Part shown: positions 4,889 to 17,884 of the stretch, piece by piece
Position numbering within the stretch: position 1 is the first letter of the stretch
Layout: each line of letters opens with the position of its first letter
Assembly (NCBI RefSeq): GCF_000069945.1
Contig: NC_010545.1
Location: forward strand, 2,108,001-2,172,000
Direction of reading: 5' to 3'
Length of the DNA: 64,000 bases
Source of the DNA: Corynebacterium urealyticum DSM 7109
GTDB lineage: Bacteria; Actinomycetota; Actinomycetes; Mycobacteriales; Mycobacteriaceae
Program-made: the position numbers and the translations under genes
Notes under the pieces: generated by a model
What the model was told of the DNA's origin: nothing
The model's database searches: none
Seen by the model: the letters and a program-made list of their open reading frames with translations, nothing else

Positions 4889-7800
4889 ATGTACCTGCTT
4901 GCAGCAGGGCAGGCGACAAGCACTGACATTCCGTGGAATGTCACGGTTCCCCTGGGGATCATTGGCGCACTGCTCTCCATCCCAGCCTGGATTTTCTTCC
5001 TCCGCGGTGCCCTGCAGATCTTCAAGACGATCCGCTTGGGCCAGCCAGCGCTGAAGCGCACGGATAACCCGGGCGCCCGCCTCGGCAACCTGATCAAGGA
5101 AATCCTGGGCCACACGAAGATGGCCAAGAAGCCTGGGGTCGCTATCGCCCACTGGTTCGTCATGGTGGGCTTCCTCCTGGGCTCACTGGTCTGGTTCGAG
5201 GCCTACATCCAGACCTTCAACCCCGAGGGCGGCTGGCCGATCATCGGCAACTGGGCCGTCTACCACTTCGTTGACGAGATCCTGGGTATCGGCACCACGC
5301 TGGGCATCATCGCCCTGATCATCATCCGCCAGAACATCGGCGATAAGGAGCGCAAGGCACGCTTCTACGGCTCCAACGCCAAGGCCGCGTACTTCGTCGA
5401 GATCGTGGTCCTCCTTGAGGGCCTGGGCATGATGTTCGTGAAGGCCGGCAAGATCGCCACCTTCGCCAGCTACGAGGGTGGCCACGTCGCCACCGACTTC
5501 CTGACGATGCAGATCGCGAAGATCCTGCCGGAGTCCCCGCTGATGGTCTCCGTCTTCGCGCTGATCAAGCTGCTCTCTGGCATGGTCTGGCTGTTCATCG
5601 TGGGTCAGAACATCACCTGGGGTGTCGCATGGCACCGCTTCATGGCGTTCTTCAACATCTTCCTGAAGCGCAACTCCGACGGCCGTAACGCGCTCGGCGC
5701 GGCGAAGCCGATGACTTCCCAGGGTCGCATCCTGACTATGGAAAACGCCGACCCGGACACGGATAACATCGGCGCCGGCTCCATCGAGGACTTCACCTGG
5801 AAGGGCTGGATGGACTTCACCTCCTGTACCGAGTGTGGCCGCTGCCAGGAGCAGTGCCCGGCGTGGAACACGGAGAAGCCGCTGAGCCCGAAGAAGCTCA
5901 TCATGGACCTGCGCGACCACGCAGTCTCTTCTGCCCCGTACCTGCTGGAGAAGGCCTCCGCCCCTACCGGTGGCGGCCTGTTCACCGGTGACGCCACCGA
6001 GGCGGATCCGGCAGCCGAAGCGCACGCCGATATGCCGCTGCTGCAGCTGGTCGCCGAGGGCGAGATGGGTGTTATCGACCCGGACGTCCTGTGGTCCTGC
6101 ACCAACTGTGGCGCCTGTGTCGAGCAGTGCCCGGTGGACATCGAGCACATCGACCACATCGTCGACATGCGCCGCTACAAGGTGCTGGCTGAGTCCGAGT
6201 TCCCGACCGAGCTGGGTGGCCTGTTCAAGAACATGGAGACCAAGGGCAACCCTTGGGGCCAGAACAACAACCAGCGCTCCGACTGGATCCAGAAGGCGAA
6301 GGCCGACGGCATCGAGGTGCCGGTCTTCGGCGAGGACATCGAGAACTTCGACGACACCGAGTACCTGTTCTGGGTCGGTTGTGCCGGCGTCTACGACGAC
6401 AACGCCACCAAGACGACCCGCGCGGTCGCCGAGCTGCTGTACACCGCTGGTGTGAAGTTCGCCGTCCTGGGTGAGAACGAGGGCTGCACGGGTGACTCCG
6501 CCCGTCGCGCCGGTAACGAGTTCCTCTTCCAGATGCTGGCTGAGCAGAACATTGAGGTCCTGGACAACGCCTTCGAGGGCGTGCCGCCGAAGCAGCGCAA
6601 GATCGTGGTCACCTGTGCTCACTGCTTCAACTCTCTGCGTAACGAGTACCCAGAGATGGGCGGTAACTACGAGGTCATCCACCACACCCAGCTGCTGAAC
6701 AAGCTGGTTCAGAAGGGCTACCTGGAGCCGGTGAACACGCCGTCCTCCAGCCGTACCGTGACCTACCACGACCCGTGCTTCCTGGGCCGTCACAACAAGG
6801 TCTTCGACGCGCCGCGTGAACTGATCGGCGCCTCCGGTGCTGAGCTCACCGAGATGCCGCGCAACCGCAACACCGGCTTCTGCTGTGGTGCTGGTGGTGC
6901 CCGCATGTGGATGGAGGAGGACCTCGGTTCCCGCATCAACCTGAACCGCACCGACGAGGCGCTGGCCACCGGCGCGGACGCCATTGCGATTGGTTGCCCG
7001 TTCTGTAAGACGATGATCAACGACGGTGTGAACAACCGTCAGGCAGACATCGAGGACAAGAGCGAGCGCACCCAGGTTCTGGATATCGCTCAGATGTTCC
7101 GCGAGTCCATCCTGGTCGACGGCGAGCTGCCGGCACCGCGCTCCCCTGAGTTCCTGGCCGCCCCTGAGCGTGGCTGGGTCGATGAGGAGAAGCTGGCCCG
7201 CGAGGAGGCCGAGCGTAAGGCTGCGGAGGAAGAGAAGCGCCGCGCTGAAGAGGAGAAGAAGCGCAAGGCTGAGGCCAAGGCTGCCGAGGACAAGAAGAAG
7301 GCGGCTGCCGCTGCCGCCGGTGGCGCTGCAGCTGCGGGTACCGCGGGTGCCGCTGCCGCCGCTCCGGCTGCGCCTGGTGGTGCCCCGGCCGCTCCTTCTG
7401 CTCCGGCCGCACCAGGTGCTCCTACCGTTCCTGCTGCAGGTGTCCCGGCTGCCCCGGCTGCCCCAGCGGCACCAGGTGCTCCGGCCGCACCGTCGGCCCC
7501 TGCTGCACCATCTGCAGGCGCTCCGGCTGCTCCGGCCGCACCGTCGGCCCCGGGTGCTCCAGCAGCTCCTGCTGCTCCGGGCGCTTCCGCCCCAGCTGCA
7601 CCGAAGGCTCCTGCTGCTCCGGCAGCTCCAGGTGCCCCAGCGGCTCCGGGTGCTCCAGCGGCTCCTGCTGCACCGTCTGCAGGTGCCCCATCGGCCCCAG
7701 CAGCTCCTGCTGCACCGGGCGCTCCTGGTGCTCCAGGCGCACCGGGTGCTCCGGCGGCTCCGGGCGCTTCCGCCCCAGCTGCGCCAAAGGCTCCTGCCGC

Positions 7801-8503
7801 TCCGGGTGCTCCAGGCGCACCAGCAGCCCCGGGTGCCTCCGCTCCAGCGGCTCCGGCAAGCGAGGGCTCCGCTGCAGCTGAAAAGCCAGCAGCAGCACCG
7901 GCTGCGGAGAAGACCGAGTCCGGCGCCATCAAGCTGGGCAGCACCGCTCCGGGCGCACCAGGCGCTCCGGGTGCACCGGCTGCGCCGGCCGCAGCACCAG
8001 CGGCAGCTGCCCCTGCAGCAGCTCCAGCGGCTGAACCAGCTGAGGCTCCGACCGCCCCAGCAGCCGAGCAGAGCGAGCAGGCAGAGGCTCCAGCTGAGGC
8101 TACTGCCCCGGCAGCTGAGGCACCACAGGCTGCTGCACCAGCATCGGGTGCAACCGAGGAGGGAGGCGTGATCAAGCTCGCCGCCTCCACCCCGGGAGCT
8201 CCGGGTGCACCGGGCGCGCCAGCGGCTTCTGCTGCACCGGCTGCTGCCCCACAGGCTGCAGCGCCAGCTGCTCCGGCCCAGCCAGCAGCACCGCAGGCAC
8301 CTGCCGAAGAGCAGGCCGAGGCTCCAGCCGAGGAGGCTGGCGCTGAAGAGACCCCAGCCGAGGAAGCACCGAAGGCCGCTGAGGCTCCCGCCGCTCCGGC
8401 AGCGGATAAGCCAGCCAGTGGCGCGACCACCGAGGGTGGGGTCATCAAGCTGACCCGCAACACCCCGGGCGCACCGGGTGCCCCAGGCGCTCCTAACTCC
8501 TAA
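4889..8503 (+). CDS. Membrane-anchored 4Fe-4S / CCG-domain reductase with Ala/Pro/Gly repeat tail (Rv0338c type)
   Basis: A 1204-aa protein. Residues 1-250 hold several transmembrane helices. Two ferredoxin-type clusters follow: CTECGRCQEQCP near 312 and CTNCGACVEQCP near 404. Two cysteine-rich CCG domains follow, with TCAHCFNSL near 573 and CCGAGGARMW near 665. This is the architecture of M. tuberculosis Rv0338c and HdrD/GlpC-like oxidoreductases that move electrons at the membrane; the partner is unknown. A Lys/Glu-rich helical linker (about 770-815) leads into about 390 residues of PAAPGAP-type repeats with three IKL motifs (about 1012, 1092 and 1183). The tail makes it much longer than the mycobacterial protein (about 880 aa as recalled). 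Confidence 0.9.
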   Translation: MYLLAAGQATSTDIPWNVTVPLGIIGALLSIPAWIFFLRGALQIFKTIRLGQPALKRTDNPGARLGNLIKEILGHTKMAKKPGVAIAHWFVMVGFLLGSLVWFEAYIQTFNPEGGWPIIGNWAVYHFVDEILGIGTTLGIIALIIIRQNIGDKERKARFYGSNAKAAYFVEIVVLLEGLGMMFVKAGKIATFASYEGGHVATDFLTMQIAKILPESPLMVSVFALIKLLSGMVWLFIVGQNITWGVAWHRFMAFFNIFLKRNSDGRNALGAAKPMTSQGRILTMENADPDTDNIGAGSIEDFTWKGWMDFTSCTECGRCQEQCPAWNTEKPLSPKKLIMDLRDHAVSSAPYLLEKASAPTGGGLFTGDATEADPAAEAHADMPLLQLVAEGEMGVIDPDVLWSCTNCGACVEQCPVDIEHIDHIVDMRRYKVLAESEFPTELGGLFKNMETKGNPWGQNNNQRSDWIQKAKADGIEVPVFGEDIENFDDTEYLFWVGCAGVYDDNATKTTRAVAELLYTAGVKFAVLGENEGCTGDSARRAGNEFLFQMLAEQNIEVLDNAFEGVPPKQRKIVVTCAHCFNSLRNEYPEMGGNYEVIHHTQLLNKLVQKGYLEPVNTPSSSRTVTYHDPCFLGRHNKVFDAPRELIGASGAELTEMPRNRNTGFCCGAGGARMWMEEDLGSRINLNRTDEALATGADAIAIGCPFCKTMINDGVNNRQADIEDKSERTQVLDIAQMFRESILVDGELPAPRSPEFLAAPERGWVDEEKLAREEAERKAAEEEKRRAEEEKKRKAEAKAAEDKKKAAAAAAGGAAAAGTAGAAAAAPAAPGGAPAAPSAPAAPGAPTVPAAGVPAAPAAPAAPGAPAAPSAPAAPSAGAPAAPAAPSAPGAPAAPAAPGASAPAAPKAPAAPAAPGAPAAPGAPAAPAAPSAGAPSAPAAPAAPGAPGAPGAPGAPAAPGASAPAAPKAPAAPGAPGAPAAPGASAPAAPASEGSAAAEKPAAAPAAEKTESGAIKLGSTAPGAPGAPGAPAAPAAAPAAAAPAAAPAAEPAEAPTAPAAEQSEQAEAPAEATAPAAEAPQAAAPASGATEEGGVIKLAASTPGAPGAPGAPAASAAPAAAPQAAAPAAPAQPAAPQAPAEEQAEAPAEEAGAEETPAEEAPKAAEAPAAPAADKPASGATTEGGVIKLTRNTPGAPGAPGAPNS
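7320..8500 (+). repeat. Coding tandem Ala-Pro-Gly repeats (collagen-like)
   Basis: In-frame GCT/CCG/GGT-rich repeats encode GAPAAP, PGAPGAP and PGASAPAAPKAP units at the C terminus of the Fe-S reductase. Three longer modules end in a Gly-(Val)-Ile-Lys-Leu motif followed by PGAPGAPGAP, starting near 7921, 8163 and 8433. The last one forms the extreme C terminus. Length variation between strains is likely. Confidence 0.9.
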
Positions 8504-8573: not shown

Positions 8574-8698
8574 TATGCGCCGCCTCGCGGCAATCCCCTT
8601 TGAAACGCAACAGTCCGTCGCGGACTACTCCAGCCCCTGCTAAAAACGGGACCTGCCGGTCAGCCCCAGCGCCCCACCACCAACAGTGAAGCGCCGAC

Positions 8699-9359: not shown

Positions 9360-10328
9360 TTAGAGGCGCTGGCGGCTCAGGAAGTTCCAGACTTCCTGGC
9401 TGGCATCCGGCACGCGGTTCCAGGTGTGGTTCTGCGGGTTGGTGATCAGCTGCGTCTCAGCGCGGGCGCAACGGTAGACGTGGCGCTTGCCGCCCGGGAC
9501 GTTGTGGATCGCTGGCTGCGGTGCACAGCCATTGCGGGCCTTGTAGCTGTTCATCAGGCGCGGGACGCTCAGGTACGGACGGCCGTGGCGGGTGCCGCCG
9601 TTGTAGCGCATCATCGTGTCGCCGGTGCCGTGCATCACGAGGATCGGGATCGGCAGGTTCTTACAGCCGGAGTTCACCGGGTTGTAGTAGGCACCGCCGA
9701 CGGACGCGACACCCGCGAAGACGTGCGGCAGGTGGCAGGCGACGACAGCGGTCATGCCGCCACCATTGGAGTGGCCGGTGGCGTAGATGCGGCGACGGTC
9801 GACGTTGTAGGTGCGGTCAATCTCGTCGATGATCTGGGTGACGAAGCGCAGGTCCTCGCCGCCACGGACGCTAGCGTACGGTGCACCCTCCCAGCCGTGG
9901 TTGATGGACTCCGGGTAGATGCGGATGGCCTCGCGTGCCGCACCAGTCTCGTGCAGGCGGGAGTAACGGCGGAAGTTCTCCGGGCTATCGCGCCAGCCAT
10001 CGAAGCCGAAGACCACCGGGGCGGGGCGGGCCGGGTTGTAGTGAGTCGGGACGTGCATGATGTACCGGCGGTTGCGGCCGGTGGACTTGGTGTACACGTT
10101 GATGGATTGGCCGTTGCCGATGTGCGGAGCTGGCTTCGCGTTATTCGGGCGCCCCTGCGGCGCCGGTGCCGGCGCGTCCGGCAGGCTGGAGCCCGCTGGG
10201 AGTGCGTCCTGCACCCGCTGGCCGTTCGGCAGGCGGATGTCGCCGAGGTTCGGCAACTGAACCTGTGGGAGCTGGAAGTCGGAAGACTGTGGGACGGCTG
10301 GCAGCGGTGGCAGCTGCGCCTCAGCCTT
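9360..10328 (-). pseudogene. Secreted PHB-depolymerase/LpqC-like esterase, main part, separated from its 5' end by an insertion
   Basis: About 319 residues of an esterase of the PHB-depolymerase / feruloyl-esterase type. A Pro-rich N-terminal linker is followed by VVFGFDGWRDSPENFRRYS, the nucleophile elbow GHSNGGGMTA, VMHGTGDTMM (Asp region) and NHTWNRVPD (His region). Cys pairs suggest an exported enzyme. The reading frame runs on into IS DNA (first about 17 codons to 10379), but that start is artificial. The true start and signal peptide are at 17884-17769. Joining the two parts with one copy of the 8-bp duplication gives an uninterrupted 358-aa precursor. As it stands the protein would lack its signal peptide and native promoter. 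Confidence 0.9.
10321..10328. repeat. 8-bp target site duplication, left copy
   Basis: TCAGCCTT directly abuts the left end (GAGGGTGTC) of the IS256-family element. The identical octamer follows the right end at 17769-17776. Confidence 0.92.
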
Positions 10329-10810
10329 GAGGGTGTCAGGAAGTTTGTGTGTGAGGCTCTGATTGAGAGGGAGTTTCACCGATAATGACTACGGTGTCAC
10401 CGAAGAAAGGCCATGACCCGGCGAGGGTCAACGAGATCAGCGAGAAGCTGATGGAAAATCCTGAGCTGGCTAGCCTGATCAGCGAGCTGTCGACCTCCGC
10501 TGATGATGCCAGCGAGCTGGTCAAAGGCCTGCTGCAGGCATCAATCAACGCTGGTCTGCAGGCGGAGATGGATGCGCATTTGGGCTATAGCCACTCCGAC
10601 CGCAAGTCCAAAGCCCAGGTTGAACCCGTGCACGGCGGCAATCACCGCAACGGGTCGTACACCAAGACCGTCAATTCTGGCTACGGCGCGGTGGAAGTGA
10701 CCGTGCCCAGGGATCGTGCTGGCACGTTTACTCCGAAGATGGTGCCCAAGGGCGCACGCCGGCTCACAGAACTCGACGACATGATCGTCTCGCTATACGC
10801 CGGCGGGATG
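10329..10810 (+). mobile_element. IS256-family element, left end remnant
   Basis: It begins with GAGGGTGTCAGGAAGTTTGT, an imperfect inverted match to the right end at 17768 (GAGAGTGTCCGATTCTTTGT when read inward). It contains the transposase 5' part and is cut at about 10810 by the IS3-family element. The outer boundaries are intact and the centre is replaced. Confidence 0.88.
10385..10810 (+). pseudogene. IS256-family transposase, N-terminal fragment
   Basis: About 142 residues from ATG 10385. They contain SASINAGLQAEMDAHLGY-like sequence, GNHRNGSYTKTV and VPRDRAGTFTPKMVPK, all hallmarks of the N-terminal region of IS256-type (mutator) transposases. The reading frame stops matching at SLYAGGM, where the inverted repeat of the next element begins. 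The C-terminal 85 residues are found 6.7 kb away at 17474-17733. The DDE core is missing. Confidence 0.9.
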
Positions 10811-10874
10811 GGGCCCGGCCCCCGGAAAGTAGACACCGTGGGGGTGAAATTATTGGCTTTACTCTAGCGCATTG

Positions 10875-11759
10875 TTAGGAAGCGTGAGATTCGTACTCAA
10901 TGGGTGTGAGGTACTTGCACCAGGAATGCCTTCGGGTGGTGTTGTAGCGCGCACACCATGCGAAGACGTCGCGTCGGCAGACTAGCTGATTGGAAAAGAC
11001 TTTCTGGTCTTTGAGCACTTCTCGTTTCAACGCCGCGTTAAACGACTCCGCGAGTGAATTATCAGCGCTGCTGCCAACTGCTCCCATCGACTGGGTGACG
11101 TTGAGTCTTCGGCAGACAGCCTGAAACTGCGATGAGGTATACACGCTGCCATGATCTGAGTGGAAGATCGCCCCGGAGAGACTGCCACGGGTACGGCGAG
11201 CATGCTCGAGCGCTTCTTCGACGAGGTCGGTGCGCATGTGGTCTGCGATCGCGAAGCCGACGAGCATCCGCGAGTAGCAGTCAATCACAGAAGCCAGATA
11301 CATATTCGACCCGTCTGCGATCGGCAGATAGGTAATATCGCCGACGAGGATCCTATTGGCAGCTGGCGCAGTGAAGTTCCGCTTGACCAGGTCAGCGAAT
11401 ATAAAGCGATGACGCTCACGCTGTGTTGTCGTGACCTTACGTTTTTTCGTGTAGCCGCGCAGCTGAAGCTTCCTCATAATCGGGGCGATGCGCTTATGGT
11501 TGACCGGTCCGGTGCTACTGTACGCATCGTTGAAAGTCAGCTCGGCGGCAATGCGTTTTGCGCCGTAGAGCTGCTTCTTGTCGTCGAAGATGGCCTGGAC
11601 CTTGGCTCCGAGTATGGCATCATCAACCAGTCTGCGGTGCCGCTGGGCGCTGCTAGCTTTCCATTTGTAGTAGGAGCTGCGGTTTAACCCGAGTACGGTG
11701 CACATCCGCTTGACCGAGTAATCGGTGCGGTGGTCATCAACGAACCGGAAGCGGATCAC
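10875..11759 (-). CDS. IS3-family transposase OrfB (element A)
   Basis: A 294-aa protein with an HTH_21-like start and an rve integrase core. Core signatures are VGDITYLPIADGSNMYLASVID (first Asp), FHSDHGSVYTSSQFQ (second Asp) and SADNSLAESFNAALKRE (Glu), so the DDE triad is complete. The likely start is the GTG at 11759, overlapping the orfA stop (GTGA). IS3 elements usually make OrfAB by -1 frameshifting; no obvious heptamer was seen here. Confidence 0.92.
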   Translation of the reverse strand: MIRFRFVDDHRTDYSVKRMCTVLGLNRSSYYKWKASSAQRHRRLVDDAILGAKVQAIFDDKKQLYGAKRIAAELTFNDAYSSTGPVNHKRIAPIMRKLQLRGYTKKRKVTTTQRERHRFIFADLVKRNFTAPAANRILVGDITYLPIADGSNMYLASVIDCYSRMLVGFAIADHMRTDLVEEALEHARRTRGSLSGAIFHSDHGSVYTSSQFQAVCRRLNVTQSMGAVGSSADNSLAESFNAALKREVLKDQKVFSNQLVCRRDVFAWCARYNTTRRHSWCKYLTPIEYESHAS

Positions 11760-12067
11760 CAGTTCGTCTCTTCCATGAAATATTTGGCTGCCTTACGCAA
11801 AATATCGCGTTCTTCTTTCAGGCGGGCGTTTTCCTGTTGCAGCTGACGTAGCTTCTCAGCATCGGTCAGTTGCCTCGCACGATCAGCACGTAAGCCCGCT
11901 GAAAGCTGGGGTTTCGTGCCAGTTCCGTACTTATCAACCCATACGCGAAGCGTGGAGCGGTTGATCCCTAAATCAGCGGCCGCAGCGTTCACCGACACCT
12001 GTGGATCGTTCTCGTACATCGCGACCGCGTCGCGCTTGAACTGATCCGAATAAACCTTCCTAGGCAT
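11756..12067 (-). CDS. IS3-family transposase OrfA (element A)
   Basis: A 103-aa protein, MPRKVYSDQFKRDAV, with an N-terminal helix-turn-helix (Tnp_1/IS3 group). It ends in a leucine-zipper-like helix LRQLQQENARLKEERDILRKA. It binds the terminal repeats in this family. It overlaps orfB by 4 bases. Confidence 0.92.
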   Translation of the reverse strand: MPRKVYSDQFKRDAVAMYENDPQVSVNAAAADLGINRSTLRVWVDKYGTGTKPQLSAGLRADRARQLTDAEKLRQLQQENARLKEERDILRKAAKYFMEETNW

Positions 12068-12166
12068 GGAGGTAGATTACCTTTCCCCGACTCAACACAG
12101 CCGGAATCAGAGGTGTCTACCAAACAGGGGTCAGGTCCGTCCTGAAGGTTTGGTTGACCTCCGGGT

Positions 12167-13051
12167 TTATGCCGCCAGTGTAGCGGCTGGGTTCATGATG
12201 AGTTCGAACTCGATGGGGGTGAGTTTCCCGAGTCGGCGTTGACGGCGTTTGCGGTGGTACTTGCCCTCGATCCAGGACACGATGGCCAGACGCAGTTCTT
12301 CTCGTGTGCCCCAGGATCGACGGTCGAGGACGTTCTTCTGCAGTAGCGCGAAGAACGACTCCATCGCGGCGTTATCGCCACATGCCCCGACCCTGCCCAT
12401 CGAGCCACGTAGCCTGTGGCGCTTCAGCGCTTTGCGGAAGCGGCGCGACCGGAATTGGGACCCTCGATCGGAATGGACGATCACCCCAGCGGGCCGGCCT
12501 CGGTGGACCACCGCCATCTCGAGCGCGTTGACGGCGATACGGGCCTTCATCCGTGAATCGATCGAGTAGCCCACGATCCGGTTGGAGAACACGTCCTTGA
12601 TCGCACACAGATACACCTTGCCCTCGCGGGTGCGGTGCTCGGTGATATCGGTCAGCCACACCTGGTTAGGTTCGTCAGCGGTGAACTGACGCTGCACCAG
12701 GTCATCGTGAACCGGTGCGCCGGCCTTCTTGTAGCGAGTCTTACGCCTGGCGCACACCGACTGGATCCCGGCGACCCGGCACAACTGCCACACTCTGCGC
12801 TCGGACAACTCGTAGCCCAACTCAGCGAGGTCGTCTGCCAGCACCCGGTAGCCGCCTTCCGGATCATCGGCGTGGAGTTCGCGCAGCACGGCGATCAACT
12901 CGCGTTCCTCGGCCTCACGGGCTGACACCGGTTGCTTGAGCCACTTGTAGTAGCCCTGTTTGGAGAATCCCAGTATCCGGCACGCGACCGCCACCGGCAC
13001 CCTCACCCGGCCACCGACCGCGGCCATCTCCTTCACGAGCGGATAGATCAT
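12167..13051 (-). CDS. IS3-family transposase OrfB (element B)
   Basis: A 294-aa DDE integrase-type protein. VWLTDITEHRTREGKVYLC carries the first Asp, IVHSDRGSQFRSRRF the second, and GDNAAMESFFALLQKN the Glu. The start ATG at 13051 overlaps the orfA stop (ATGA). It differs clearly from element A OrfB, so the two elements belong to different IS3 subgroups. Confidence 0.93.
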   Translation of the reverse strand: MIYPLVKEMAAVGGRVRVPVAVACRILGFSKQGYYKWLKQPVSAREAEERELIAVLRELHADDPEGGYRVLADDLAELGYELSERRVWQLCRVAGIQSVCARRKTRYKKAGAPVHDDLVQRQFTADEPNQVWLTDITEHRTREGKVYLCAIKDVFSNRIVGYSIDSRMKARIAVNALEMAVVHRGRPAGVIVHSDRGSQFRSRRFRKALKRHRLRGSMGRVGACGDNAAMESFFALLQKNVLDRRSWGTREELRLAIVSWIEGKYHRKRRQRRLGKLTPIEFELIMNPAATLAA

Positions 13052-13350
13052 TTTGGGGGCATGATGTGAGCCTGCGACAGATACGCCGCCGCGCGCCGCA
13101 GCACCTCGTTTTCTATCTCCAACTCCCGGATCCTGCGCAGCGCCTGCGACATGTCCTTGCGCGCCTCTGGATCGGTGGTCGGGGTCATCCCATGGGACTT
13201 GAACCTCGCGTCACGGATCCACGCCTGCAGCGTGGTCTTCGCGATACCGAGGTCCTTGACGACCTGCTTCTGCGGGATACCCGACTCGACCAACGCGACC
13301 GCGTCGCGCTTGAACTCGTCGGTGTAGGTGATCTTCGGCATGGTTGCCAT
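13048..13350 (-). CDS. IS3-family transposase OrfA (element B)
   Basis: A 100-aa protein, MPKITYTDEFKRDAVALVES, with a helix-turn-helix and a C-terminal helix RRIRELEIENEVLRRAAAYL. The upstream ATG (13350) or the ATG at codon 4 could initiate. A C-CCA-AAA slippery heptamer precedes its stop codon. Confidence 0.92.
   Translation of the reverse strand: MATMPKITYTDEFKRDAVALVESGIPQKQVVKDLGIAKTTLQAWIRDARFKSHGMTPTTDPEARKDMSQALRRIRELEIENEVLRRAAAYLSQAHIMPPK
13051..13057 (-). promoter_or_regulatory. Putative -1 frameshift heptamer C CCA AAA
   Basis: On the minus strand CCCAAAA is in the X-XXY-YYZ phase with respect to orfA, immediately before its TGA. OrfB is in the -1 frame. This fits production of an OrfAB fusion, the active transposase of IS3 elements. 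Confidence 0.55.
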
Positions 13351-13407
13351 CCTTTCAGCACGACGCCCTCTCAGGAATCATGCGGTCTTGGAGTCAACCA
13401 AACCTTC

Positions 13408-13837
13408 GGCAGTCCCCTGCGAGTAGTACGGCTGGAACGCTTCCAAGATCGTCTCAGGATCGTTGACGAAATCCACCACGAACGTCTTGGTTTTGTTTTT
13501 CGAAGGCATCGTCCTGTTAAGACGGGAAAGTGTCTGCACCGCCATCACGCCCGATAGTGGCTTGTCCACATACATCGCGGACAAGCGTGGCTCATCGAAT
13601 CCGGTCTGGTATTTATTCGCCACGATCAAAAACTTGTATGCAGCACCGTCGACCATCTTGGACGTTTCCATCCGGCGCTGTCCCTCGGGTGCGTTTTCGT
13701 TATTGAGCGAGGATTCGGTGACGATCTGCTCTACATCTTCGTCCTTGGACACCTCCAGGGAGCCAGAAAACGCCACGAGTGCTTCAAGCCCGTGGTACTT
13801 CGGGTTGGACTTGATCACGTCTTGGACTGCTCTAAAC
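13408..13837 (-). pseudogene. hsdR: Type I restriction endonuclease HsdR, internal fragment
   Basis: About 142 residues of the second helicase domain. The segments SNPKYHGLEALVAFSG and FLIVANKYQTGFDEPRLSAM, and then VMAVQTLSRLNRT, are the characteristic motifs V-VI region of HsdR. Both ends are cut, by the IS6-family copy (13838) and by IS3 element B (13408). No hsdM or hsdS is present in the window. This is a relic of a restriction-modification locus from elsewhere. Confidence 0.88.
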
Positions 13838-14683
13838 GGTGCTGTTGCAAAGTTCGGGCGACAGGAAGACCTGCGTGAAATAATCACAGCCATGGGCATC
13901 TTCTCCGGTCGTCATTTCCCCCGTGAAATCATCCTGTGGGCGGTGCGGTGGTACTGCCGCTACGGGGTGAGCTACCGAGATCTCGAAGAGATGATGACTT
14001 CAGCGGGGCGTGCCGGTTGATCACACCACGATTCTCACCCCTGGGTCCAGAAATACGCCCCTGAGCTGGACAAGCACACTTGGTGGTACCGACAAGTTCC
14101 TGACTGGCAGGCCCGGTCCTGGCGGGTGGACGAGACCTATATCCGGGTCGGGGGAAAGTGGTGCTACCTCTATCGGACCATCACCGCTGGCGGGCATACC
14201 CTGGATTTTTACCTGTCCCCAAAGCGTAACGTCGCCGCAGCGAAGCGTTTCCTGGCCAAGCCCCTGAGGACGAACACGATAACCGGGTTCCCGCGGGTGA
14301 TCAACACCGATAAAGCACCCTCCCTGGCCAGGGCAATCGCCGAGTTGAAGTCAGAGGGAATCTGCCCGCAGACCGTGGAACACCGGCAGGTGAAATACCT
14401 CAATAACGTCATTGAAGGAGATCATGGGCGGCTGAAACGGATCCTCGGACCGAAGGGGGCGTTCAAAAACCGGACCTCGGCGTACCGGACGTTGAAAGGG
14501 ATGGAAGCGATGCACTCATTACGGAAAGGCCAGGGCGCGATGTTTGCCTACGGGCAACCGAACCCGGATGCGGTGATCGTCAGCCGGGTGTTCGAGGCTG
14601 CCTGAGAACGCCGACCCGCAGCGAGCATCAGAGGATGAAGACTGGGTCGTCACGGCTCTCCGCCTGAAGTTTGCAACAGCACC
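13838..14683 (+). mobile_element. IS6-family (IS1628-like) element, copy 1
   Basis: 846 bp with terminal inverted repeats GGTGCTGTTGCAAAGTTC (left) and its near-perfect complement ending in GCAACAGCACC (right). It is nearly identical to copy 2 (16628-17473) in the opposite orientation. The flanking octamers (CTCTAAAC left, GGATGTAG right) do not match, so this copy is no longer flanked by its own duplication. Confidence 0.92.
13892..14605 (+). pseudogene. IS6-family transposase (copy 1), internally frame-disrupted
   Basis: Start ATG 13892 and stop 14605 are in the same frame and would give 237 aa, the usual length. The middle is out of phase. After DLEEMMTSAGRAG the frame hits TGA at 14018. 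The next homologous stretch VDHTTI is in a second frame, and HPWVQKYAPELDKHTWWYRQ returns to the first frame. The simplest reading is one extra base near 13999 and two extra (or one missing) near 14033. DDE residues are present (WRVDETYIRVGG, INTDKAP, KYLNNVIEGDHG). The same lesions occur in copy 2. Confidence 0.85.
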
Positions 14684-15141
14684 GGATGTAGGGGTTGTCC
14701 CAGGTGCCGGTGGCGTTGAGGACGATGTCGGCGGTGAAGGTGGTGCCGTCGGCGAGTGTGATCCGCAGCGGGGAGGCGGGGTCCGTGGTGGTCGGTTCGA
14801 CGCGGTGGACGGCGGCTGGGCGGGCGACGTCGAGATTGAAGGTGTCCTCGTAGGCTCCGTAGTAGTCGGTGACCAGCCGGGAGGCGGGGACGTCCGGGTC
14901 GGGGCGGTCCATGGCAGGCCCGGCAGGTCCGCGATGCCGTGCGCCCTGCCGAGGGTGAGGGAGTCCCAGCGGTGGCACCACGCGCCCCGGGGCCGTCGTT
15001 CGCATCGAGAACCACCATGTCGTCCCGCCGGGTCCCGCGGCGGAGGGGCTCGTGGGCGGCGGACAGCCCGGCCTGGCCCGCGCCGATGATGACGGCGGGG
15101 ATGTGGCGGTGCTGCAGGTCAGCGGGGTTCATGGCTGTCAT
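14684..15141 (-). pseudogene. FAD/NAD(P)-dependent monooxygenase (CzcO-like), truncated and frameshifted
   Basis: From ATG 15141 (MTAMNPADLQHRHIPAVIIG) comes the Rossmann dinucleotide motif IIGAGQAGLSAA. The frame then shifts within a G/C run near 14984-14992 to WCHRWDSLTLGRAHGIADLPG, and again near 14897-14906 to SRLVTDYYGAYEDTF. The last frame continues to NATGTWDNPYI, where IS6 copy 1 cuts the gene. This is the pattern of CzcO/flavin monooxygenase proteins. Two frameshifts plus truncation make it inactive. It is divergent from adh and probably came with it. Confidence 0.82.
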
Positions 15142-15288
15142 CCTACGCCTGTTATATGACATGTCAGCAAGGTATGTGTCATGACCACTGTAATGGGAAC
15201 TATACTCATTACGAAAAGTGATGGACGTCGTAGGTTCTGTTATGTACAGTGAAACCACCCCCGGCCCCCCCCCAACGATTGGATACCC
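15142..15288. promoter_or_regulatory. Divergent control region of monooxygenase remnant and adh
   Basis: Contains the palindrome TGACATGTCA (15157-15166) and, further on, ATGTGTCAT, together forming an inverted repeat (ATGACAT..ATG-TCAT) of the kind bound by dimeric repressors. A run of nine C's precedes the adh start. The regulator is not identifiable. Confidence 0.4.
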
Positions 15289-16317
15289 ATGACTGACACA
15301 ACGTTCCGCGCCGCCGTCGTTGAGGACTTCGGTCCCGAACTCAACCTCCGCGACGTCGAGATGCCCACGCCCGGCCGCAACCAGGCGCTGGTGAAGCTGC
15401 AGGCCTCCGGCATCTGCCACACCGACCTCCATGCCGCCGAGGGTGACTGGCCCGTCAAGCCCGAGCCGCCCTTCGTTCCCGGCCACGAGGGTGTCGGCGA
15501 GGTCGTCGAACTCGGCCCCGGTGACCACTCCGTCAAGGTCGGCGACATCGTCGGCAACGTCTGGCTCTGGTCCGCCTGCGGTGAGTGCGAGTACTGCCGC
15601 ACCGGATGGGAGACCCTGTGCAACCAGGCCGAGTACGGCGGCTACACCGTCAACGGCTCCTTCGGCACCTACATGCTCGTGGATACCCGCTACTGCGCCC
15701 GCATCCCCGAGGGCTCCGACCCCGTCGAGGTCGCCCCGATCCTGTGCGCCGGCGTCACCGTCTACAAGGGGCTGAAGGTCTCCGAGACCAAGCCCGGTCA
15801 GTTCATGGTCATCTCCGGCGTCGGCGGCCTCGGCCACATCGCCGTCCAGTACGCCGTGGCCATGGGTATGCGCGTCATCGCCGTCGACATCGCCGACGAG
15901 AAGCTCGAGCTGGCCAAGAAGCACGGCGCGGAGTTCACCGTCAACGCCAAGCACGCCGACCCGGCCGAGGCGGTCCAGGAGTTCACCGACGGCGGCGCCC
16001 ACGGTGTCCTGGTCACCGCGGTCCACCCGCAGGCGTTCGGCCAGGCGGTCGGCATGGCCCGCAAGGGCGGCACCATCGTGTTCAACGGCCTGCCCCCGGG
16101 GGACTTCCCGGCCCCGATCTTCGAGATCGTGTTCAAGGCCCTGACCATCCGCGGCTCCCTCGTGGGTACCCGCCAGGACCTGGCCGAGGCGCTCGACTTC
16201 TACGCCCGCGGCCTGATCAAGCCGACCGTGTCCGAGTGCTCCCTCGACGACGTCAACGCCGTCTTCGAGGAACTGCGCCACGGCAAGGTCGACGGCCGCA
16301 TGTCCATCCGCTACTAG
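15289..16317 (+). CDS. adhA: Zinc-dependent alcohol dehydrogenase (AdhA/AdhP type)
   Basis: A 342-aa medium-chain dehydrogenase. Catalytic zinc ligands lie in SGICHTDLH and PGHEGVGEVVELG. Structural zinc cysteines lie in ACGECEYCRTGWETLC. The NAD-binding motif is SGVGGLGHIAVQYA. It should interconvert primary alcohols and aldehydes with NAD(H), so it could supply the substrate of an aldehyde dehydrogenase. It is the only intact cargo gene between the two IS6-family copies. Codon third positions are strongly C/G, somewhat unlike the adjacent IS genes, consistent with capture from another high-GC corynebacterium. A strong terminator follows. Confidence 0.96.
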   Translation: MTDTTFRAAVVEDFGPELNLRDVEMPTPGRNQALVKLQASGICHTDLHAAEGDWPVKPEPPFVPGHEGVGEVVELGPGDHSVKVGDIVGNVWLWSACGECEYCRTGWETLCNQAEYGGYTVNGSFGTYMLVDTRYCARIPEGSDPVEVAPILCAGVTVYKGLKVSETKPGQFMVISGVGGLGHIAVQYAVAMGMRVIAVDIADEKLELAKKHGAEFTVNAKHADPAEAVQEFTDGGAHGVLVTAVHPQAFGQAVGMARKGGTIVFNGLPPGDFPAPIFEIVFKALTIRGSLVGTRQDLAEALDFYARGLIKPTVSECSLDDVNAVFEELRHGKVDGRMSIRY

Positions 16318-16334
16318 CGGCCGCCGGCACCTGA

Positions 16335-16373
16335 CCCCGCCATCCCCGACCGCCCGGGTCGGGGATGGCGGGG
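16335..16373 (+). terminator. Terminator hairpin after adhA
   Basis: 17-bp GC-rich perfect arms CCCCGCCATCCCCGACC and complement, with a short loop, 17 bases after the stop. The T-tract is weak (GTTG). Confidence 0.7.
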
Positions 16374-16471
16374 TTGACGGGTTAAGGTAACTGCACACCC
16401 GTACAACTGCATCAGCGCAGCGTACACCCCACCCGGTGGCCGGTGCGTACCGGAAGGAAGTGAACGGCGCC

Positions 16472-16627
16472 ATGGATTACACCCCGTACAGCCTGCTTAT
16501 CGACGTCGGCTGGATCTCCCTGCTCATGGTCATCGGCAACGTCCTGCGCCGCAAGGTGGGCCTGTTCCAGTGCCTGCTCATGCCGGCCTCGATCACCGCC
16601 GGCCTCCTCGGCCTGATCAACTTCTCC
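16472..16627 (+). pseudogene. Sodium/glutamate symporter (GltS-like), N-terminal fragment
   Basis: From ATG 16472, preceded by GGAAGGAAG, come 52 codons: MDYTPYSLLIDVGWISLLMV, then RRKVGLFQCLLMPASITAGLLG. This resembles the start of GltS-family Na+/glutamate symporters. IS6 copy 2 truncates it at 16628. Identification rests on one segment, so the family call is moderate. Confidence 0.65.
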
Positions 16628-17473
16628 GGTGCTGTTGCAAACTTCAGGCGGAGAGCCGTGACGACCCAGTCTTCATCCTCTGATGCTCGCTGCGGGTCGG
16701 CGTTCTCAGGCAGCCTCGAACACCCGGCTGACGATCACCGCATCCGGGTTCGGTTGCCCGTAGGCAAACATCGCGCCCTGGCCTTTCCGTAATGAGTGCA
16801 TCGCTTCCATCCCTTTCAACGTCCGGTACGCCGAGGTCCGGTTTTTGAACGCCCCCTTCGGTCCGAGGATCCGTTTCAGCCGCCCATGATCTCCTTCAAT
16901 GACGTTATTGAGGTATTTCACCTGCCGGTGTTCCACGGTCTGCGGGCAGATTCCCTCTGACTTCAACTCGGCGATTGCCCTGGCCAGGGAGGGTGCTTTA
17001 TCGGTGTTGATCACCCGCGGGAACCCGGTTATCGTGTTCGACCTCAGGGTCTTGGCCAGGAAACGCTTCGCTGCGGCGACGTTACGCTTTGGGGACAGGT
17101 AAAAATCCAGGGTATGCCCGCCAGCGGTGATGGTCCGATAGAGGTAGCACCACTTTCCCCCGACCCGGATATAGGTCTCGTCCACCCGCCAGGACCGGGC
17201 CTGCCAGTCAGGAACTTGTCGGTACCACCAAGTGTGCTTGTCCAGCTCAGGGGCGTATTTCTGGACCCAGGGGTGAGAATCGTGGTGTGATCAACCGGCA
17301 CGCCCCGCTGAAGTCATCATCTCTTCGAGATCTCGGTAGCTCACCCCGTAGCGGCAGTACCACCGCACCGCCCACAGGATGATTTCACGGGGGAAATGAC
17401 GACCGGAGAAGATGCCCATGGCTGTGATTATTTCACGCAGGTCTTCCTGTCGCCCGAACTTTGCAACAGCACC
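16628..17473 (-). mobile_element. IS6-family (IS1628-like) element, copy 2
   Basis: 846 bp, same length as copy 1 and inverted relative to it, with the same GGTGCTGTTGCAAA terminal repeats. The transposase differs from copy 1 at only a couple of visible codons (AKTLRSN versus AKPLRTN). The two copies bound a 3.6-kb segment (13838-17473) resembling a composite transposon. No matching octamers flank it. Confidence 0.92.
16706..17419 (-). pseudogene. IS6-family transposase (copy 2), internally frame-disrupted
   Basis: Same 714-bp start-to-stop span as copy 1, with the same two compensating frame breaks around AGRAG-stop and VDHTTI. Sharing identical lesions means one copy derives from the other after the damage. 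Either the protein was supplied in trans or by recoding, or the copies spread by recombination. Confidence 0.85.
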
Positions 17474-17733
17474 TTCAATCGAGTCGCTCAACGCTTAAAC
17501 TGCGTAAAGCTACCCGTAACCGCGGGCAATTCCCGAACGATACCGCGGCGCTGAAAACGCTGTGGCTGATGATCTGCAACATCGAAGACAAGCGCGCTGC
17601 CCAGCGAGCGAAGAATGCAAAGCGCGACATCGAATGCAACGGCTATGTTGAAGGGGTGAAAGCCACCGGGTGGAAACAGGCCATCAACCAACTAGCTGTG
17701 GCACACCCCGACCGATTCGCGGACTACTTGTAA
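17474..17733 (+). pseudogene. IS256-family transposase, C-terminal fragment
   Basis: Encodes LRKATRNRGQFPNDTAALKT, then LMICNIEDKRAAQRAK and GWKQAINQLAVAHPDRFADYL with a TAA stop at 17731, which is the conserved C terminus of IS256-type transposases. Just upstream, IESLNA is in another frame (one extra base near 17492), so this end is also damaged. Confidence 0.85.
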
Positions 17734-17768
17734 ACCAAGCCCCCGCACACAAAGAATCGGACACTCTC
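17474..17768 (+). mobile_element. IS256-family element, right end remnant
   Basis: Contains the transposase 3' end and the right terminal repeat ending GACACTCTC at 17768. It is followed directly by the TCAGCCTT duplication. Together with 10329-10810 it defines the outermost insertion. Confidence 0.88.
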
Positions 17769-17776
17769 TCAGCCTT
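17769..17776. repeat. 8-bp target site duplication, right copy
   Basis: TCAGCCTT, identical to 10321-10328. It keeps the esterase frame (..TPKAE | AQLPPL..) when one copy is removed. Confidence 0.92.
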
Positions 17777-17884
17777 TGGTGTGGTGGGCAGTTCTCCCAG
17801 GCCCAAGCCTAGCACCAGTAGCCCGCTAAAAGCGACGACGGCGGCGCGCTTGAACCCACGGCGAGCTCTAAGGTTTTTCAGCAT
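17769..17884 (-). pseudogene. Esterase 5' end: start codon and signal peptide of the split gene
   Basis: ATG at 17884, preceded by AAGGTAAGAG, encodes MLKNLRARRGFKRAAVVAFS, then GLLVLGLGLGELPTTPKAE. This is a classic Sec signal peptide: basic n-region, hydrophobic core, and a likely cleavage near AEA once joined to AQLPPLPAV at 10320. On its own the frame runs into IS256 DNA after AE. It matches 9360-10328 in frame and strand. Confidence 0.9.

What the first reader, a model, noticed from the sequence alone, without database searches (positions are those of the whole stretch)
9360..17884. A secreted esterase gene is split in its signal-peptide region by a 7.4-kb nested insertion with an exact target duplication
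The esterase body (9360-10328) and an orphan signal peptide (17769-17884) are on the same strand. Both abut TCAGCCTT octamers next to the two ends of one IS256-family element. Removing 10329-17768 with one octamer gives 1077 bases, a multiple of three, and the continuous sequence ..TTPKAE|AQLPPL... The enzyme should therefore have been inactivated recently: no frame damage is visible in either half.
Basis: partly seen in the sequence, partly recalled or inferred. Interest (0 to 1): 0.75.

Follow-up and report, generated by a model that had tools for sequence, protein, structure and literature searches.

The report
Esterase gene split by loaded IS256
In what is likely the urinary-tract bacterium Corynebacterium urealyticum, a gene for a predicted secreted esterase is cut in two by 7.4 kb of nested mobile DNA lying between two exact copies of an 8-base sequence, which likely switched the enzyme off fairly recently; the process is ordinary, although the element may have jumped in already broken and loaded.

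Summary
The esterase body (9360-10328, minus) and its signal peptide (17769-17884, minus) each end in TCAGCCTT at the outer ends of an IS256-family element. In two sister genomes the two parts lie side by side and share that octamer once: an empty site with the predicted junction. The genome has seven full IS256 copies, five with exact 8-base duplications and a sixth with 9 bases. The window copy keeps only its ends (482 and 295 bases); 665 bases of its middle are replaced by two IS3 elements, an hsdR fragment and an inverted IS6 pair around an adhP segment 93-94% identical to two other Corynebacterium genomes.

Recency is supported: 5 replacement and 16 silent changes in the body, against 14 and 39 in the sisters. 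A decay contrast points the same way only weakly (P 0.06-0.09). No second copy of the nest was seen. Ordinary IS biology, unusually well resolved.

The parts
9360..10328 (-). Body of a secreted-type alpha/beta-hydrolase esterase (PF00756), cut off from its signal peptide; Ser, Asp and His of the presumed triad are present
   Evidence: (PF00756 35.4 bits, cut-off 22)
10321..10328 (.). Left copy of the 8-base target duplication TCAGCCTT
10329..10810 (+). Left 482 bases of an IS256-family element, with the first part of the transposase (from 10385)
10811..12138 (-). IS3-family element a (orfA 11756-12067, orfB 10875-11759); 98-99% identical to full-length matches in three other Corynebacterium genomes
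   Evidence: limits from the match ends
12140..13415 (-). IS3-family element b (orfA 13048-13350, orfB 12167-13051); limits approximate
13416..13837 (-). Fragment of a type I restriction subunit gene (hsdR); 77-85% DNA identity to loci in five other genomes
13838..14683 (+). IS6-family element, left copy (closest named relative seen: ISCef5); transposase frame stopped at its codon 43 (14018-14020)
14684..16627 (.). Cargo: 5' fragment of an oxidoreductase-like gene (-; label by eye), intact adhP (15289-16317 +), 5' fragment of a membrane-protein-like gene (from about 16473 +; label by eye); contiguous at 93-94% in G095 and G213
16628..17473 (-). IS6-family element, right copy, inverted; 2 of 846 bases differ from the left copy; frame stopped at the same codon 43
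17474..17768 (+). Right 295 bases of the same IS256-family element, with a 1-base insertion relative to the seven full copies
17769..17776 (.). Right copy of the 8-base target duplication TCAGCCTT
17769..17884 (-). Start codon and signal-peptide part of the esterase gene; its frame now runs into the IS end and stops at 17684

Best explanation
An IS256-family element whose middle has been replaced by about 6.7 kb of other mobile and foreign DNA sits inside an esterase gene between two exact copies of an 8-base sequence, and it likely inserted there by IS256 transposition and likely stopped the enzyme from being exported. Shown: the split gene, the octamers, the empty site in two sister genomes, seven full-length IS256 copies with open transposase frames in the same genome, and the make-up of the insert. 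Inferred: the element was probably already gutted and loaded, in a lineage close to the unnamed species G095, when it landed, and was moved in trans by transposase from full copies. Inferred: the signal-peptide fragment makes at most a short dead-end peptide, and the body, if translated at all from a start inside the IS end, lacks its export signal. The insertion itself I hold at about 0.95; the figure below is for the whole statement, including arrival as a loaded unit.
For: Empty site with a single octamer in the two sister genomes that align across it. Duplications of 8 bases at 5 of 7 full copies and 9 bases at a sixth. All 7 full copies have an open 449-codon transposase frame. The remnant has 15 states that none of the 7 full copies share (they have 0-3 private ones each); the five in the left arm are all found in the IS256 copy of G095, two of them in that copy alone among 20 other-species matches, and four in the right arm are found in 7 of 20, 12 of 20, 21 of 22 and 10 of 23 such matches. 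The coding ones among the shared states, five, are all silent. Among 242 genomes G095 also has the best match other than the own one to the cargo (94%) and to the hsdR fragment (85%), and a 99% match to 928 bases of IS3a. IS3a, IS3b, the IS6 pair, cargo and hsdR fragment showed no other close copy in the own genome (in 15 and 16 only two candidates per genome were scored). The esterase body has 5 replacement and 16 silent changes on its branch against 14 and 39 on the two sisters (Fisher P = 1).
Against: No listed match spans a junction of the nest in 242 Corynebacterium genomes (two candidates scored per genome and long lists cut) or in plasmids. At 22 of 32 sites where the G095 copy differs from most own copies, the remnant follows the own copies, not G095, so its lineage is mixed. 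The decay argument is weak: five substitutions and one insertion seem unique, all in the right arm (0.003-0.008 by chance if both arms decayed alike), and an extra base at the insertion place also appears in some other-species alignments. Pyrosequencing errors could add to them. No promoter-like site facing the esterase was found at the IS end.
Confidence: 0.45

Rival explanations
1. In-place assembly: a full IS256 element landed in the esterase first; IS3a, IS3b, the IS6-flanked cargo with hsdR and the loss of 665 bases came later at the same spot.
For: Dead genes tolerate further insertions, and the outer octamers do not tell the order. No second copy of the nest was seen. IS-in-IS nesting is seen elsewhere in this genome: the IS256 copy at G000:1919376 lies between pieces related to IS3a. 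The left IS arm shows no unique change at all.
Against: Needs several further events within a short time after gene loss. If five or six unique changes in the IS ends date from after the insertion, 11-12 replacement changes are expected in the esterase body and 5 are seen (P = 0.06-0.09). Parts of the nest point to one outside lineage, G095.
Confidence: 0.33
2. Import by recombination: a plain IS256 sat in the esterase, and homologous exchange within its two arms swapped in the interior of a related, loaded IS256 from incoming DNA.
For: The remnant is a mixture: in the left arm it follows the G095 copy at bases 36-65 and 443-476 and the own copies at 12 sites between 81 and 323; in the right arm it follows G095 at 4 of 14 sites. 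Cargo and hsdR are closest to G095.
Against: G095-type states reach to base 36 from the left end, outside a block of own-type states, which needs more than one exchange or later changes in G095; no donor with the nest was found.
Confidence: 0.18
3. Assembly artefact: IS-rich contigs of the genome were joined wrongly at this place.
For: The genome was established by pyrosequencing (title of the genome paper as cited), and seven near-identical IS256 copies exist.
Against: Both flanks are syntenic with the sisters on either side of the octamer, and a wrong join would not give an exact 8-base duplication at the ends.
Confidence: 0.03

Closest known systems
IS256 family insertion sequences (Mutator-type transposase, 8-base target duplications)
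   Same: Transposase_mut domain, imperfect terminal inverted repeats, 8-base duplication, seven full relatives in the same genome
   Different: The window copy has lost 665 bases and its working transposase; it spans 7,440 bases because of foreign DNA inside it
Transporter ISs / mobile insertion cassettes (IS ends carrying passenger genes; passages of PMC3129680 seen)
   Same: IS ends, a passenger gene (adhP), no own working transposase, related full copies present that could act in trans
   Different: The passenger arrived as a stack of other ISs; movement as a unit is inferred, not shown
IS6/IS26 pseudo-compound transposons (passages of PMC7986276 seen)
   Same: Two near-identical IS6 copies around a chromosomal passenger segment
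   Different: Copies are inverted, whereas the review calls direct repeats invariable; no 8-base duplication outside the pair; transposase frame stopped in both copies. The same review says that transposition within one replicon can leave an inverted pair
CE1-like / PHB-depolymerase-type esterases (PF00756; solved relatives named feruloyl esterase, 9j07, 8jh8)
   Same: alpha/beta-hydrolase with GHSNGG motif; presumed Ser-Asp-His present in 15 of 15 relatives compared (triad assignment recalled)
   Different: Below the NCBIfam cut-offs for PHB depolymerase; substrate unknown

Membership tests
IS256 family (the window remnant) | Mutator-type transposase domain | tested here: met
   PF00872, 78.8 bits against cut-off 21, first part only; NCBIfam NF033543 59.8 bits, below its cut-off of 150, as expected for a fragment
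IS256 family (the window remnant) | 8-base target duplication | tested here: met
   TCAGCCTT on both sides; empty site with one copy in L088 and L089; 5 of 7 full copies likewise, one with 9 bases, one with none
IS256 family (the window remnant) | Terminal inverted repeats shared with full copies | tested here: met
   Left 26 bases identical to all seven full copies; right end differs from them at one base within the last 26
Transporter IS / mobile insertion cassette | IS ends around passenger DNA with related transposase in trans | tested here: met
Transporter IS / mobile insertion cassette | Moves as one unit (copies at more than one site) | tested here: inconclusive
   No listed match spans a nest junction in 242 genomes or in plasmids; one genome per species, two candidates scored per genome, lists cut
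IS6 pseudo-compound transposon | Flanking IS copies in direct repeat | tested here: not met
   The two copies are inverted
IS6 pseudo-compound transposon | 8-base duplication outside the pair | tested here: not met
   CTCTAAAC on the left; on the right CGATTGAA when read on the other strand
PHB depolymerase (NCBIfam TIGR01840, NF050058) | Score above the curated cut-off | tested here: not met
   Intact relative P0003: 56.2 against 107.85 and 110.9 against 150
Putative esterase, PF00756 | Score above the gathering cut-off | tested here: met
   35.4 bits against 22

The most novel reading that the evidence does not exclude
A dead IS256, gutted and refilled with two IS3 elements, a restriction-gene fragment and an IS6-bracketed alcohol dehydrogenase segment from another species, behaves as a 7.4-kb transposon powered in trans by intact IS256 copies, and its jump into the esterase is a caught-in-the-act case of a nested IS pile moving as one piece between species and sites.
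Probability: 0.37. Interest if true: 0.45.

Novelty: new member of a known kind. Interest (0 to 1): 0.3.

Why it matters
It shows a clean gene loss with an identifiable empty site and halves that can be dated against sister genomes, so the order of events in a nested IS pile can be tested rather than guessed. If the loaded element moved as one unit, fossil IS ends in IS-rich genomes would be live cargo carriers as long as one intact relative supplies transposase, and counts of 'dead' IS copies would understate mobility. For the bacterium itself the loss of one esterase, with two related genes still present, is probably a small matter.

Tried and rejected
Considered and rejected: that the octamer is a chance repeat (empty site in two genomes); that the esterase decayed long ago; that the IS6 pair is a standard pseudo-compound transposon (inverted, no outer duplication). 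That the two IS arms come from unrelated copies is not favoured, since both carry states absent from the seven full copies but present in other species' copies; best hits of the two arms to different own copies gave that first impression.

Corrected on the way: which compared only 10 left and 11 right arms, I counted eight unique changes and modelled them (P 0.03-0.09). One search, with 20 left and 23 right matches including the left arm of G095, leaves five substitutions and one insertion, all in the right arm; one search gives P = 0.06-0.09 and shows that this unevenness is itself unlikely under plain decay. At the insertion, treated the neighbouring substitution by one of two possible alignments; both alter the residue.

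Led nowhere: plasmid searches for the nest or its junctions; a promoter scan of the IS end; paper searches, of which only listings with abstract starts were seen. The genome paper of the species (10.1016/j.jbiotec.2008.02.009) is not held. PMC4460590, a comparison of two strains, has no occurrence of esterase, insertion, pseudogene or IS256 in its main text (passages only). PMC3662823 was read whole; PMC2408644, PMC7986276 and PMC3129680 as passages. The insertion could not be looked for in other strains of the species: the genome collections hold one genome per species, and the 180-member protein cluster behind P0003 shows only its representative.

The numbers 0.75 for the neutral replacement fraction and 720 replacement sites are my assumptions. 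In one search a pattern for one loop matched 1 of 30 relatives and was replaced by an alignment of 15 relatives.
Full report
Where it is. The window is G000:C1:2108001-2172000 of a single-contig genome of 2,369,219 bases. That is exactly the length given for Corynebacterium urealyticum AM942444 in a published table (PMC2408644, passage); the name therefore rests on length plus relatedness, not on a label.

What is in the sequence. The minus-strand frame 9360-10328 encodes the body of an alpha/beta-hydrolase esterase (PF00756, 35.4 bits against a cut-off of 22), and 17769-17884 on the same strand encodes a start codon and what looks like a typical signal peptide (no signal-peptide predictor was run). 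Each stops at TCAGCCTT, at 10321-10328 and 17769-17776. Between them lie 10329-17768, whose outer ends are GAGGGTGTC... and ...GACACTCTC. The octamer occurs at no other place on this strand of the window.

The empty site. I gave the two flanks as separate queries against eleven relatives' loci. In Corynebacterium sp. HMSC27B11 (L088) the body part matches down to base 5001 and the signal-peptide part up to base 5008; the same numbers come from Candidatus C. intestinavium (L089). The parts are therefore adjacent and share one octamer. The other nine loci match only in the body or further upstream. HMSC27B11 and the database protein P0003 (359 aa, a cluster of 180 sequences) read through in one frame. 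L089, a metagenome assembly, has a one-base shift in the signal-peptide part, which does not touch the junction. In the genus search of 242 genomes, 11 besides the own one carry a relative at 69% identity or more, and in 11 of 11 the matched frame holds no stop.

The interrupting element. Left bases 10329-10810 and right bases 17474-17768 match seven full 1441-base copies in the same genome at 97-99% and 93-97%. All seven have an open 449-codon transposase frame. Five have exact 8-base duplications, a sixth (L036) an exact 9-base one, and L035 none. The window copy lacks element bases 483-1147. In their place stand, in order: an IS3-family element (10811-12138), a second IS3-family element (about 12140-13415), an hsdR fragment (13416-13837), an IS6-family copy (13838-14683), 1.9 kb of cargo, and a second, inverted IS6 copy (16628-17473) that differs from the first at 2 of 846 bases. 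The IS6 transposase frame is stopped at codon 43 in both copies.

Where the parts come from. The cargo matches two other Corynebacterium genomes, G095 and G213, as one contiguous stretch at 94% and 93%. In G095 the gene at each edge continues as a long open frame beyond the stretch (I listed frames for G095 only). So the cargo is a slice of another species' chromosome with one complete gene, adhP (NCBIfam NF006940, 353 bits against a cut-off of 344). The names I give the two cut genes are by eye; the NCBIfam scan returned nothing for the frames tried. IS3a is 98-99% identical over its length to copies in G009, G010 and G035, and 99% over 928 bases in G095. The best hsdR match is also in G095, at 85%, with 82-83% in three further genomes. 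No other close copy of these pieces appeared in the own genome (searches scored only two candidates per genome).

The IS ends. The remnant has 15 states that none of the seven full copies share; those copies have 0 to 3 private ones each. All five in the left arm are found in the IS256 copy of G095, two of them in that copy alone among 20 other-species matches; four in the right arm are found in 7 of 20, 12 of 20, 21 of 22 and 10 of 23 matches. The five shared coding changes are all silent. This speaks for a separate, once-living lineage shared with species such as that of G095. It is not a plain G095 copy: at 18 left and 14 right sites where the G095 copy differs from most own copies, the remnant follows G095 at 6 and 4 and the own copies at 12 and 10. 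Left over are five substitutions and one insertion, all in the right arm; the substitutions occur in none of 20-23 matches, while an extra base at the insertion place is seen in a few. Four of the five substitutions alter the residue, as in a dead element, but an even decay of both arms would hardly put all of them on one side (0.003-0.008).

How old. The esterase body shows 5 replacement and 16 silent changes on its own branch, against 6 and 14 on L088 and 8 and 25 on L089; four further codons differ in all three and were left out. The difference from the sisters is nil (Fisher P = 1), and with an assumed neutral replacement fraction of 0.75 the gene was unconstrained for at most about 36% of the branch, one-sided 95%. 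The body is one residue shorter than P0003. If the five or six unique IS changes had accumulated after the insertion, 11-12 replacement changes would be expected in the body where 5 are seen (P = 0.06-0.09). This leans towards an element that was broken before it arrived, but weakly.

Reading. Shown directly: a gene split by an IS256-ended insert at an 8-base duplication, with the empty site in sister genomes. Inferred: loss of enzyme export, because the signal-peptide frame now runs into the IS end and stops at 17684, and the body is left with only an IS-borne start at 10379. Inferred with modest support: the element was already gutted and loaded, in a G095-like lineage, when it arrived, and full copies supplied the transposase. 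Assembly in place and import by recombination remain open. Against the loaded hop stands that no listed match spans a nest junction in 242 genomes of the genus, one per species (two candidates scored per genome, lists cut), or in plasmids.

What was lost. Solved relatives by sequence are called feruloyl esterase or PHB-depolymerase-family esterase; the presumed Ser, Asp and His (assignment recalled, not shown by a structure) are present in 15 of 15 relatives compared. The PHB-depolymerase models are not met, so the substrate is open. Two more distant relatives (39-40% identity) remain in the genome.

Verdict. The kind of event is ordinary. The added point, that the insert may have been built elsewhere and hopped in whole, is a small but testable surprise.

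Noticed in passing
13838-14683 and 16628-17473: Two inverted IS6-family copies, 2 of 846 bases apart, with the transposase frame stopped at codon 43 in both; they are the only close copies in the genome, so a dead IS6 seems to have been duplicated or imported as a pair.
   Followed up: partly
14684-16627: A slice of another Corynebacterium chromosome with intact adhP, 93-94% identical to G095 and G213; G095 also has a close match to IS3a, the best match to the hsdR fragment and the odd states of the IS256 left arm, so it may resemble the donor.
   Followed up: partly
8604-8616 against L088:6710-7894: HMSC27B11 has about 1.2 kb between the genes flanking this point that the window lacks; either an insertion there or a deletion here.
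   Followed up: no
4889-8503: Iron-sulphur oxidoreductase-like protein (label by eye) with a long C-terminal tail made mostly of Ala, Pro and Gly.
   Followed up: no
G000:C1:1919376-1920816 (L040): A full IS256 copy with duplication ACCGCTGA lies between pieces related to IS3a at 66-67% identity: another IS-in-IS nest in the same genome.
   Followed up: no
L035 and L039 flanks: The right flank of the IS256 copy at 422687, which lacks a duplication, shares nine bases with the reverse complement of the left flank of the copy at 2247773 (compared by eye); perhaps a trace of exchange between copies, perhaps chance.
   Followed up: no
L126 (G095:C77:110988-112714): The IS256 copy of G095 has 951 bases between the two arms where full copies here have 665, so it too carries extra or altered sequence inside.
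   Followed up: no
L089:4892-5010: The metagenome-assembled sister carries a one-base shift in the signal-peptide part of the otherwise uninterrupted esterase gene; assembly error or an independent loss.
   Followed up: no
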